From the NCBI RefSeq assembly GCF_002934665.1, contig NZ_NIRS01000004.1, positions 684,501-748,500 on the forward strand: DNA of 64,000 bases, given 5' to 3'. Origin of the DNA: Pseudomonas laurylsulfatiphila (GTDB lineage Bacteria > Pseudomonadota > Gammaproteobacteria > Pseudomonadales > Pseudomonadaceae). Each line of letters opens with the position of its first letter. Position 1 is the first letter of the stretch. The notes beneath the pieces are model-generated. The model saw only the letters and a list, made by a program, of their open reading frames with translations, was not told the origin of the DNA and made no database searches. The translations under genes were made by a program, and so were the position numbers. Of this stretch, positions 61,546 through 64,000 are shown piece by piece.

Positions 61546-61573
61546 GCTTTCGCGGGCGAGCCCGCTCCCACAG
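61546..61573. repeat. single REP
   Basis: CTTTCGCGGGCGAGCCCGCT followed by CCCACAG. It contains GCCCG-CT-CCCACAG, the same sequence as the reconstructed target of the adjacent IS110 element. Confidence 0.75.
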
Positions 61574-61638
61574 TGGATCGCATTTCTCCAGAACAACCCG
61601 GCTTCCTGTGGGAGCAACTGTCTTCCCCCAGCCACTCG

Positions 61639-62556
61639 TCACCGCCACTCGGTGCCGTCCCGCAACATGGCATTCAGCCTGATCAGTAGGATCCGCATGC
61701 AGGCGATGAGCGCGACTTTCGCGCTCTTGCCTCGCTCCCGAAGAGCGTCATAACGTGCCTTGAAGTCTGGCTGATGACGGATCACGACCCAGCAAGACAT
61801 GTAAAGCGCACGTCTGACGCGGGCTCTGCCTCCGTAGATTTGACGTTTTCCGCTGTGATTGCCACTGTCGTCGTTGTACGGCGCAATTCCCGCCAAGGCC
61901 GCCACTTCACGACGATCAAGCGCTCCCAATTCGGGCAGATAAACCAGCAAGCTGGCTGTGGCCACCGTACCGATGCCTTTAACGGAAATGAGTCGCTCGG
62001 CTTTTTCGGCATCCAGCTCATGCATGCTCTGATGGATGGTTTTATCGAGCTGCTTGATCTGCACTTGCAGGTAGTGAACAAGACCTTTGATCGCCACGGT
62101 AACAGCGGGTAGTTGAACTTGCTGAAGCCGGCGCTTGTTGTCGTCTCGTTGCTGAACAAACTGCTCGCGCAACTGGATCAGCTCGCGCAGCGCTTCACGT
62201 TCCGGCGAAATGATCTTGTCGCGGGATGCATGCAGCACTTCAGCGAAGTCCGCCAGCACGGCCGCGTCGATGGGGTCGGTCTTGGCATTCTTGCCCATGG
62301 CCACGGCGAAGGCTCTGGCCCGGCGGGGATTGATTCTAAGCACTTTGAAGTTGGCGCCTTGCAGCGCCGCCATGACCTTGCATTCGTACCCACCGGTGGC
62401 CTCCAGCAGAACCCGGTCAACCTCGTACTGGCTCAGGCGCTCAATCAGCTCAACAAAGCCTTCTGACGTATTGGGAAGGTCAAAACCTTCACCTTGAGGT
62501 TGAACCCATACAACCAGGTTTGATTTGGAGATATCGATGCCGACCCAGGAAATCAT
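61639..62556 (-). CDS. IS110-family DEDD transposase/recombinase
   Basis: 305 residues. The N-terminal RuvC-like domain has Asp in WVGIDISKS, Glu in LLEATGGYE and Asp pair in KTDPIDAAVLADF. A coiled-coil linker follows, then the Tnp20 domain with HhH-like VKGIGTVATASLL and the catalytic Ser region DSGNHSGKRQIYGGR. The reading frame is intact. It is predicted to be guided by the non-coding RNA encoded just upstream. Confidence 0.93.
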   Translation of the reverse strand: MISWVGIDISKSNLVVWVQPQGEGFDLPNTSEGFVELIERLSQYEVDRVLLEATGGYECKVMAALQGANFKVLRINPRRARAFAVAMGKNAKTDPIDAAVLADFAEVLHASRDKIISPEREALRELIQLREQFVQQRDDNKRRLQQVQLPAVTVAIKGLVHYLQVQIKQLDKTIHQSMHELDAEKAERLISVKGIGTVATASLLVYLPELGALDRREVAALAGIAPYNDDSGNHSGKRQIYGGRARVRRALYMSCWVVIRHQPDFKARYDALRERGKSAKVALIACMRILLIRLNAMLRDGTEWR

Positions 62557-62580
62557 GGCAAAACCCTCTTACACTCAGGA

Positions 62581-62735
62581 GTGAGAGTGCTCTGGCTTTG
62601 CCCACGCTTGTGATTCGAGTGGCGCTCGTCCAACTGTTCGGGCTTATGGGCCAGAGTGGAAAGGTGGATGGCAGCTTGGCTCCCACACGTGCTTTTAGCA
62701 CCGCGGACTCACAGCTTGCCATCCACCTCTCTCAC
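62581..62735 (-). ncRNA. predicted bridge RNA of the IS110 element
   Basis: Two stem-loops are read on the minus strand. The first has arms AGGTGGATGGCA and TGCCATCCACCT; its loop carries GTCCGC, a GTGC-TAAAA-GCAC hairpin, then TGTGGGAGC. The second carries ACAGTTG, a CGAG-CGCCA-CTCG hairpin, then CACAAG. TGTGGGAGC is complementary to the right target half plus core; GTCCGC matches the left half GCCCGC with one wobble; ACAGTTG equals the element's right end; CACAAG is complementary to the left end with core. The ends of the RNA are approximate. Confidence 0.8.
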
Positions 62736-62822
62736 CCCAGAGTTTATCCCTAGATCTAGACACAAGCGGGCTTGCCCGCGAAGAGGCCCTAAAAAACGAC
62801 ACAAACTGAAAGCCAGCCCCAT

Positions 62823-62853
62823 AAAAAACGCCAACCCGAAGGTTGGCGTTTTT
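62823..62853 (-). terminator. rluB terminator (bidirectional)
   Basis: AAAAACGCCAACC-CGAA-GGTTGGCGTTTTT is a strong stem with A- and T-runs on either side, about 35 bases after the rluB stop. Confidence 0.9.
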
Positions 62854-62888
62854 AACTTGTCGCTTGCAGCTTGAAGCTTACCGCTGCC

Positions 62889-64000
62889 TCATTCCGGCTT
62901 ACGACGACCAAAGCCCGGACGCTGGCCGGAACCGGCCGGAGCGCCACGGCGCTTGCCCGATGGCGTGTCACCGTCGACCAGCTTGATCCCCGGACGCTTC
63001 GGCGCCGGCTTGGCCGGGCGCTTGGTGTCGGTCGGGCGATCGGCTACCGGCGTACCACGGCCTTCGCCACGCTCGGTACGGCCATTGGCCGGACGTGGCG
63101 TGCGTGGACCGCGTTCGCCGTCCTGGCGCGCAGCAGGCTTGCGACCTGGACGCTCGCCTTCGATCTGCGGCTCGCGGCTGGCACGTGGAGCAACAGGAGC
63201 GGCAGGAGCCCCAGCGGCTGGACGCAGGGTGCGTACACGCTCGGTCTTGGCCATCGGACGCGACGACTTGCGCTGCATACGGTCAAGCTTGTCTTTGCTC
63301 TTGGCGTTCATCTGCGGCATCGCGACCGGCGTCAGGCCGACCTCGGCACTCAGAATGTCGACTTCGTATTGGCTCATTTCGCGCCAGCGGCCCATCGGCA
63401 GGTCGGAGTTGAGGAACACCGGACCGAAACGTACGCGCTTCAGACGGCTGACCACCAGGCCCTGAGATTCCCACAGGCGACGAACTTCGCGGTTACGACC
63501 TTCCATCACCACGCAGTGGTACCAGTGGTTGAAACCTTCACCGCCTGGCGCCTGCTTGATGTCGGTGAACTTGGCCGGACCATCTTCAAGGACAACGCCA
63601 GCCTTCAGGCGCTCGATCATCTCGTCATCGACTTCGCCACGCACACGTACCGCGTATTCACGGTCCATTTCGTAGGAAGGGTGCATCAGGCGGTTGGCCA
63701 GCTCACCGTCGGTGGTGAACATCAGCAGACCGGTGGTGTTGATGTCCAGGCGACCGATGTTGATCCAGCGACCTTCTTTCGGACGCGGCATCTTGTCGAA
63801 CACGGTCGGACGGCCTTCCGGATCGACACGGGTGCAGATTTCGCCGTCGGGTTTGTTGTACATGATCACGCGGCGCACCGATTCGGCGGCCTCTTCACGC
63901 TTGATCACCTTGCCATCGATGGTGATGGCGTCGTGCATGTCGACGCGCTGGCCAAGGGTGGCGTCTTTGCCGTTGACCTTGATGCGGCCGTGGCTGATCC
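62889..64000 (-). CDS. rluB: 23S rRNA pseudouridine synthase RluB, 5' end outside the window
   Basis: The frame is open from the window edge to a TGA at 62889. The part seen begins in the S4 RNA-binding domain (SHGRIKVNGKDATLGQRVDM). It continues with the RsuA-type catalytic domain: the Asp is in GRLDINTTGLLMFTTDGEL, with RNREVRRLWESQGL further on. The tail is long, Arg/Pro/Gly-rich and basic (about the last 130 residues), as in Pseudomonas RluB. It modifies U2605 (E. coli numbering). Confidence 0.92.
   Translation of the reverse strand, partial: ISHGRIKVNGKDATLGQRVDMHDAITIDGKVIKREEAAESVRRVIMYNKPDGEICTRVDPEGRPTVFDKMPRPKEGRWINIGRLDINTTGLLMFTTDGELANRLMHPSYEMDREYAVRVRGEVDDEMIERLKAGVVLEDGPAKFTDIKQAPGGEGFNHWYHCVVMEGRNREVRRLWESQGLVVSRLKRVRFGPVFLNSDLPMGRWREMSQYEVDILSAEVGLTPVAMPQMNAKSKDKLDRMQRKSSRPMAKTERVRTLRPAAGAPAAPVAPRASREPQIEGERPGRKPAARQDGERGPRTPRPANGRTERGEGRGTPVADRPTDTKRPAKPAPKRPGIKLVDGDTPSGKRRGAPAGSGQRPGFGRRKPE

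What the first reader, a model, noticed from the sequence alone, without database searches (positions are those of the whole stretch)
62581..62766. Bridge RNA of an IS110 element with all four guide segments readable
On the minus strand the non-coding end upstream of the transposase has two stem-loops. In the first, GTCCGC and TGTGGGAGC stand either side of a GTGC/GCAC hairpin. They match the left half (GCCCGC, one G-U wobble) and pair with the right half plus core (GCTCCCACA) of the REP target. In the second, ACAGTTG equals the element's right end and CACAAG pairs with its left end plus core (CTTGTG). This is the arrangement of target- and donor-binding loops established for IS621-type bridge RNAs (IS110 family). 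The matches are exact 6-9-mers in the expected order and strand sense.
Basis: partly seen in the sequence, partly recalled or inferred. Interest (0 to 1): 0.92.

Follow-up and report, generated by a model that had tools for sequence, protein, structure and literature searches.

The report
RNA guide of a jumping element
A small mobile DNA element in a Pseudomonas genome carries a folded RNA whose loops spell out where it inserts, a mechanism published in 2024; comparing relatives shows that guide and landing site change together, so the reading is right but the kind is already known.

Summary
The element (61615-62764, minus strand) is an IS110-group insertion sequence: a 305-aa DEDD recombinase and a 208-nt upstream non-coding end that folds into two looped stems. 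All 8 copies in the genome sit in the same REP site. In relatives, at 42 of 47 sites with a complete left flank the guide spells the five bases beside the core (U.G wobble allowed), and at 50 of 52 the right side. Guides change with targets; permuted pairings never reached the observed fit (0/50,000). Exceptions exist (G165, G117, G188, G646). It is a new member of a known kind: REP-targeting IS110s and their bridge RNAs are published. One further result, not found in the literature searches made here: Rfam's Xanthomonas RNA sX15 (RF02234) is this kind of locus read from the opposite strand. An antisense RNA to the bridge RNA, like ISPpu9's Asr9, is possible but unproven.

The parts
61615..62764 (-). 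IS110-group element, 1150 nt without the core dinucleotides
   Evidence: same ends and length in 8 of 8 copies in the genome, coordinates
61639..62556 (-). DEDD recombinase (tnp), 305 aa; D8, E52, D94, D97 and S231 line up with IS621 D11, E60, D102, D105, S241
   Evidence: IS621 residue numbers from PMC11208158 passages
62557..62764 (-). non-coding left end (208 nt) that holds the bridge RNA; the right non-coding end (61615-61638) is only 24 nt, as in the IS110 rather than the IS1111 group
62581..62736 (-). predicted bridge RNA: outer helix GTGAGAG/CTCTCAC closing two looped stems
   Evidence: fold z -5.35 for 62557-62766; 11 of 45 pairs with compensatory change, 0 of 500 shuffles
62703..62708 (-). 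left target guide GTCCGC (= target GCCCG + core C, one rU.dG wobble)
62679..62687 (-). right target guide TGTGGGAGC, complementary to GCTCCCACA
62631..62637 (-). left donor guide ACAGTTG (= the element's right end)
   Evidence: ACAGTT is invariant in 17 of 17 aligned sequences, the last G is A in L021 and L073
62607..62612 (-). right donor guide CACAAG, complementary to core + left end CTTGTG
   Evidence: ACAAG invariant in 17 of 17, the first base varies
62741..62746 (-). [quoted passage not shown] 7 of 12 consensus positions
   Evidence: read from the sequence; the scan of linear 61550-62900 found no consensus promoter; inference
62765..62766 (-). left core dinucleotide CT
61613..61614 (-). 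right core dinucleotide CT
61607..61612 (-). right target half CCCACA (REP)
62767..62778 (-). left target half, REP stem CGGGCAAGCCCG
61560..61572 (+). unoccupied REP target GCCCGCTCCCACA about 40 nt away: the insertion is in one half of an inverted REP pair
   Evidence: read
62580..62741 (+). match to Rfam sX15 (RF02234), i.e. antisense to the bridge RNA; 50.9 bits, below the gathering score of 55

Best explanation
This is a mobile IS110-group insertion sequence that finds its target with a bridge RNA. The RNA is encoded in the left end, on the same strand as the recombinase gene. Its first loop pairs with both halves of the REP target GCCCG-CT-CCCACA, and its second loop pairs with the joined ends of the excised circle, ACAGTTG-CT-TGTGTC. 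The DEDD/serine recombinase, held on the RNA, exchanges strands at the shared CT core and inserts the element there. Shown here: the anatomy, eight same-site insertions, a conserved and covarying fold, and guide-target covariation across relatives. Inferred from IS621: transcription from a promoter completed in the circle, binding of the RNA by the recombinase, and the chemistry.
For: Both IS110 Pfam domains pass their cut-offs; IS621 and ISCro4 are the only PDB sequence relatives at E<=0.001, with the five catalytic residues aligned. 8 of 8 copies sit at the same base of a REP with the CT core on both sides; the genome holds 163 intact GCCCGCTCCCACA sites, 0 for the reversed control pattern. 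Fold: 11 pairs with changes on both sides, 0 of 500 shuffles. Target loop: 42 of 47 sites with a full left flank match the guide over five core-adjacent bases, and 50 of 52 match the right guide over CT+4. Changed guides go with changed targets: ATTCG in all 6 G018 sites fetched, one of which (L088) has a left flank that differs beyond those five bases (by eye); GCCCC in G158; CTCCTAC in G127; CTTCCTA in G161; TAACGC in Lysobacteraceae-type relatives. Permutation of targets among 25 guide/target rows: observed 139.5, mean 114.6, sd 3.5, 0 of 50,000; 9 target classes: 54.5 vs 41.4, 0 of 50,000. Guide-target mismatches in rows with at most two mismatches: 9 are wobbles for an RNA of the recombinase strand, 1 for the opposite strand, 17 neither.
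Against: No RNA or transposition data for this element. G165: all 3 sites fetched have guide GCCCG but target GCCCC; G117 has one site with mismatches; G188's site needs a one-base register shift. G646: one guide, three different left flanks. Two G156 copies carry a right guide with one mismatch; the G156 rows L021 and L073 also have a donor guide ending in A where the right end has G. Donor pairing could not be tested by covariation: I selected loci by the end motifs CTTGTGTC and ACAGTTG. Right-guide permutation: 104 of 20,000 on 15 rows, but 1,613 of 20,000 on 4 distinct classes. One of five fold measures, the number of further pair types, did not exceed shuffles (20 vs 20.3). No consensus promoter was found. 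The rows are related, so the permutation counts are not independent events.
Confidence: 0.94

Rival explanations
1. The folded left end is only the 5'-untranslated leader of the recombinase mRNA, a structure that hides the ribosome site; target choice is made by the protein reading the REP.
For: The end lies directly upstream of tnp. In ISPpu9 the corresponding 244-nt leader was reported to fold and restrain translation (PMC8450116, sections 16 and 24).
Against: A leader does not explain why internal-loop bases differ with the insertion site across relatives, including a site whose left flank agrees with its sister sites only over the guide-matching bases (L088, by eye). The two roles can coexist.
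Confidence: 0.04
2. The functional RNA of this region is the opposite-strand one (Asr9/sX15-like), and the minus-strand guide matches are its mirror image.
For: Rfam sX15 matches the + strand in all 8 copies. ISPpu9 Asr9 is an abundant, stable antisense RNA to the tnp leader (PMC8450116). The conserved fold does not tell the strand: 7 G-U versus 6 A-C cells in pairs common to both folds.
Against: Wobble mismatches favour the tnp strand 9 to 1. Loop order and strand sense follow the IS621 rule on the tnp strand.
Confidence: 0.03
3. The guide matches are chance in a GC-rich palindromic stretch.
For: The left target guide taken alone is common in shuffles, 13,384 of 20,000 with free wobble.
Against: All four in order: 0 of 20,000. 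Guides and targets change together.
Confidence: 0.005

Closest known systems
IS621 bridge RNA and recombinase (IS110 group)
   Same: DEDD + serine recombinase, long left end upstream of tnp, CT core, first loop for target and second for donor, REP target
   Different: Distant protein (phmmer E 5.7e-28); different REP sequence; [quoted passage not shown]
ISPpu9 and ISPpu10 of P. putida KT2440
   Same: IS110 family, inserted between bases 9 and 10 of the P. putida REP with a two-base repeat, AG for ISPpu9 (PMC1525189 section 4, PMC8450116 section 16); a figure legend in PMC11208160 says that predicted guides of ISPpu10 are shown (passage)
   Different: Sequence identity not tested: their sequences were not found in what I searched and the ISPpu10 paper is not held
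Rfam RF02234, sX15, Xanthomonadaceae sRNA
   Same: Same locus type, just upstream of an IS110 recombinase gene; similar layout of an outer helix and two stems
   Different: The model is the opposite strand; our element scores below its gathering threshold (50.9 vs 55 bits)
seekRNA of IS1111/IS110 elements (PMC11187229)
   Same: Guide RNA in the non-coding region; ISPa11 targets a P. aeruginosa REP
   Different: IS1111 members carry it downstream of tnp; seen here as the start of the abstract in a listing and passages only

Membership tests
IS110 family, IS110 group | DEDD RuvC domain plus Transposase_20 domain with catalytic serine | tested here: met
IS110 family, IS110 group | non-coding left end much longer than right end (IS1111: the reverse) | tested here: met
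   208 nt versus 24 nt; criterion from PMC11208160 section 12
IS110 family, IS110 group | site-specific insertion at a short core dinucleotide | tested here: met
   8 of 8 copies, CT core on both sides
IS110 bridge RNA | two stems with internal loops, conserved fold | tested here: met
IS110 bridge RNA | first loop pairs with bottom strand of left target and top strand of right target | tested here: met
   rule from PMC11208160 section 6
IS110 bridge RNA | target loop covaries with target | tested here: met
   0 of 50,000; exceptions G165, G117, G188, G646
IS110 bridge RNA | second loop pairs with the element's own joined ends | tested here: met
   ACAGTTG and CACAAG/CTTGTG; one-base donor-guide mismatch in L021 and L073
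IS110 bridge RNA | donor loop covaries with donor ends | tested here: inconclusive
   Pseudomonas loci were selected by their end motifs; adding Lysobacteraceae-type relatives gives a few end types (ACAAG with CTTGT, ATAAG with CTTAT), read by eye, no statistic
[quoted passage not shown]
   TTGCTT-17-TAAACT across the junction, 7 of 12, read from the sequence; no consensus promoter in linear 61550-62900
IS110 bridge RNA | RNA is made, bound by the recombinase and reprogrammable | not testable with these tools
   needs RNA and recombination assays
Rfam sX15 (RF02234) | score at or above the curated gathering score | tested here: not met
   50.9 versus 55 bits
ISPpu9 / ISPpu10 | sequence identity at the level of one named IS | not tested
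   reference sequences not available here; a 12-base ISPpu9 pattern had at most two hits in any of 249 genomes

The most novel reading that the evidence does not exclude
IS110 elements of this lineage carry a second RNA on the opposite strand that is the antisense of the bridge RNA. Rfam sX15 in Xanthomonas and Asr9 in ISPpu9 would be two independent sightings of it, and ISPpu9's Ssr9 (a unit with left and right end boxes but no tnp) would be a bridge RNA from a tnp-less element. Integrated copies would then make mainly the antisense RNA, and the circle the bridge RNA, giving a switch between resting and mobile states.
Probability: 0.3. Interest if true: 0.7.

Novelty: new member of a known kind. 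Interest (0 to 1): 0.42.

Why it matters
It adds a natural set of bridge RNAs whose guides differ between relatives, most of them within one bacterial genus, with eight same-site copies and multi-copy relatives as internal replicates. That gives ready-made guide/target pairs, including wobble and mismatch cases, for testing bridge-RNA specificity. It also gives an Rfam family of unstated function an identity (an IS110 bridge-RNA locus) and raises a testable question about antisense control.

Tried and rejected
ISPpu9 itself was sought, to test whether Asr9 is antisense to its bridge RNA and Ssr9 is that RNA, with a 12-base promoter string quoted in PMC8450116. In 249 genus genomes 45 had a hit and none more than two, so no multi-copy ISPpu9 carrier was found; the Asr9/Ssr9 reading rests on the paper's text alone. 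Strand choice from G-U versus A-C pairs was inconclusive: each strand's own fold favours itself, and pairs common to both give 7 versus 6 (A1) and 8 versus 12 (A2). Solo bridge RNAs without recombinase were looked for with model R1. Of the loci inspected, L120 ends at a contig end inside the element, and L119, L121 and L124 are decayed copies; L122 and L123 also lie at contig ends and were not read further. I saw no clear tnp-less family, but I did not inspect every hit. Near DNA matches on plasmids: none. The genome-contig scan gave only two relatives.

Rows dropped: 33 of 86 loci had no CTTGTGTC left end in the window searched and were left out (distant relatives, truncated contigs, and L022, which one search recovered with a wider window). 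L097 and L099 are second fetches of sites already counted and were removed. G188's 41%-identity group (L091-L096) was not analysed further. The 25 rows are distinct guide/target combinations transcribed by hand from earlier outputs; sX15-type loci without a recognised left end (L140, L146, L147, L149, L151) are not among them, and the left ends of L101 and L124 were placed by eye, which leans towards a match.

Full report
What is there. The window lies in a 6.68-Mb genome of 13 contigs; the closer of the two named relatives of the recombinase that the genome scan returned is in Pseudomonas sp. TH10, 97% identical. On the minus strand, 61639-62556 encodes a 305-aa recombinase with both IS110 Pfam domains. 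Its only PDB sequence relatives at E<=0.001 are ISCro4 and IS621 transposases, and D8, E52, D94, D97 and S231 align with the IS621 catalytic residues. Eight copies of the element exist in the genome. All eight are 1150 nt between the same end motifs and differ by at most nine bases from the window copy. All eight interrupt a REP at GCCCG|CT and CT|CCCAC; seven of eight continue CCCACA. The window copy sits in one half of an inverted REP pair, whose other half is intact at 61560-61572. The genome still holds 163 intact GCCCGCTCCCACA sites, against 0 for the reversed pattern.

The RNA. The 210 nt from the core to the base before the start codon fold at -93.8 kcal/mol, against -70.1 +/- 4.4 for shuffles. 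Seventeen distinct sequences align over the whole RNA. The consensus has an outer helix and two looped stems. 98.4% of cells are paired, and 11 of 45 pairs carry changes on both sides, not reached in 500 shuffles and at most 2 in slid controls; one measure of five, further pair types, did not exceed shuffles. All four in order occurred in 0 of 20,000 dinucleotide shuffles; the left target guide alone is not significant.

The refutation test. In a sample of 249 genomes of the genus, own genome included, 21 have a recombinase relative at E<=1e-40 and 22 have an RNA match at E<=0.001. I took left and right ends from 52 insertion sites (loci; counts). Of 47 with at least five bases of left flank, 42 match the left guide over all five core-adjacent bases with wobble allowed, and 5 do not: three in G165, one in G117, and one in G188 that fits with a one-base shift. 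Five more sites have the flank cut by a contig end. On the right, 50 of 52 match over CT plus four bases; two G156 copies have a guide with one mismatch. The sites were chosen by their end motifs, so donor pairing is not tested by this set.

Changed targets come with changed guides: ATTCG in G018, all six sites fetched, one of which (L088) has a left flank that differs from the others beyond those five bases; GCCCC in G158; CTTCCTA and a GCCCC left half in G161; CTCCTAC in G127. Decayed copies L119 (GCGCG) and L124 (AAGCCG) still match their own flanks. With Lysobacteraceae-type relatives added (TAACGC, GAGC and CGTCG types), permuting targets among 25 rows never reached the observed fit in 50,000 trials (139.5 vs 114.6 +/- 3.5). 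With one row for each of nine target classes the result is the same (54.5 vs 41.4), and the own target is the best or joint best for 8 of 9. An earlier test on Pseudomonas rows alone gave 1 of 20,000 (17 rows) and 4 of 20,000 (12 combinations). The right-side test gave 104 of 20,000 on 15 rows but only 1,613 of 20,000 on four distinct classes. Rows are related, so these are not independent events. G646 is a counter-example: one guide, three different left flanks.

Which strand. The fold does not tell the strand: pairs common to both strands' folds show 7 G-U against 6 A-C cells. Guide-target mismatches do lean: in rows with at most two mismatches, nine are wobbles for an RNA of the recombinase strand, one for the opposite strand, and 17 neither. 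The order target loop then donor loop, and the strand each side pairs with, follow the IS621 rule (PMC11208160 section 6, read) on the recombinase strand.

An Rfam family explained. Rfam sX15 (RF02234) matches the + strand of the element, below its gathering score (50.9 vs 55 bits). At E<=1 it matches exactly the eight copies and nothing else in the genome, with 150 of 1,277 first-look candidates scored; at that loose limit it also rings in 3 of 14 control genomes, none over the cut-off. At E<=0.001 the controls are silent. In 321 genomes of the class, 2 have a match at E<=0.001, the own genome and G260. The family's consensus finds nine Xanthomonas plasmids, among them pXCV183 of strain 85-10; that sX15 was described in that strain is recalled, not looked up. 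There, the stretch opposite and just downstream of the sX15 match begins MNGIGIDVCKAK..., which I read as an IS110 recombinase start in a truncated element; no annotated recombinase of this family is there. In 119 genomes of the family of G260 (probably Lysobacteraceae, inferred), 19 have sX15 matches at E<=0.001. I examined 30 of the 32 listed matches as loci; one (L157) is a weak opposite-strand echo of another match, lies on the recombinase strand, and is left out. Of the remaining 29, 22 have an IS110 recombinase match (E<=1e-3) on the strand opposite to sX15; two of these (L140, L153) share one weak match. Seven have none: three lie at contig ends (L144, L154, L159) and four do not (L138, L142, L143, L151). 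So sX15 is best read as the bridge-RNA locus of IS110 elements, modelled on the opposite strand. A search for papers holding 'sX15', Xanthomonas and sRNA found one, a list entry, and none holds bridge RNA, Rfam and IS110 together.

The antisense question. In ISPpu9, an abundant and stable RNA, Asr9, is antisense to the tnp leader. A second RNA, Ssr9, is made from units that carry the element's left and right boxes joined by AG but no recombinase, and these occur alone or in tandem (PMC8450116: abstract, sections 3, 16, 23 and 24, and passages). Read with today's knowledge, Ssr9 looks like a bridge RNA from a tnp-less element and Asr9 like the antisense of the bridge RNA; this is inference. Against a simple antagonist role, extra Asr9 raised transposition about three- to fourfold. 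I could not obtain ISPpu9 to test this. Whether the present element makes an antisense RNA is unknown.

Known or new. REP-targeting by IS110 elements of Pseudomonas was published in 2006 (PMC1525189: abstract and sections 4 and 13 read). Bridge RNAs were published in 2024 (PMC11208160: abstract, sections 6 and 12, and passages; PMC11208158: passages), with ISPpu10 among the examples named in a figure legend. This element is a new member of that kind. I could not say which named IS it is closest to.

Noticed in passing
window 62580-62741 (+); L101:1801-1957; L133-L162: Rfam sX15 (RF02234) is best read as an IS110 left-end locus on the strand opposite to the recombinase.
   Followed up: yes
L028, L045, L084 (G165): All three copies have left guide GCCCG but target GCCCC: a one-base guide-target mismatch next to the core.
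   Followed up: partly
L144, L154, L159 (G646): One left guide with three different left flanks: either loose left recognition, later changes, or action of another copy's RNA.
   Followed up: no
L133-L141 and related loci: Most relatives in this group sit at TAACGC|CT, which looks like an integron attC end (recalled resemblance, not tested).
   Followed up: no
G000:C9:444225; C1:638925; C6:669427; C6:683218; C10:357934: Five further IS110-family matches (open frames of 352-356 aa) in the same genome; four have the same match score.
   Followed up: no
L140/L153 (G662:C73:5321-6209): Two sX15-type units on the same strand about 0.7 kb apart beside a weak recombinase match, reminiscent of the ssr9 tandems of ISPpu9.
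   Followed up: no
L073, L074 (G156): Two copies carry a right guide changed from TGTGGGAGC to TGGGGGAGC, although their right target is CTCCCA.
   Followed up: partly
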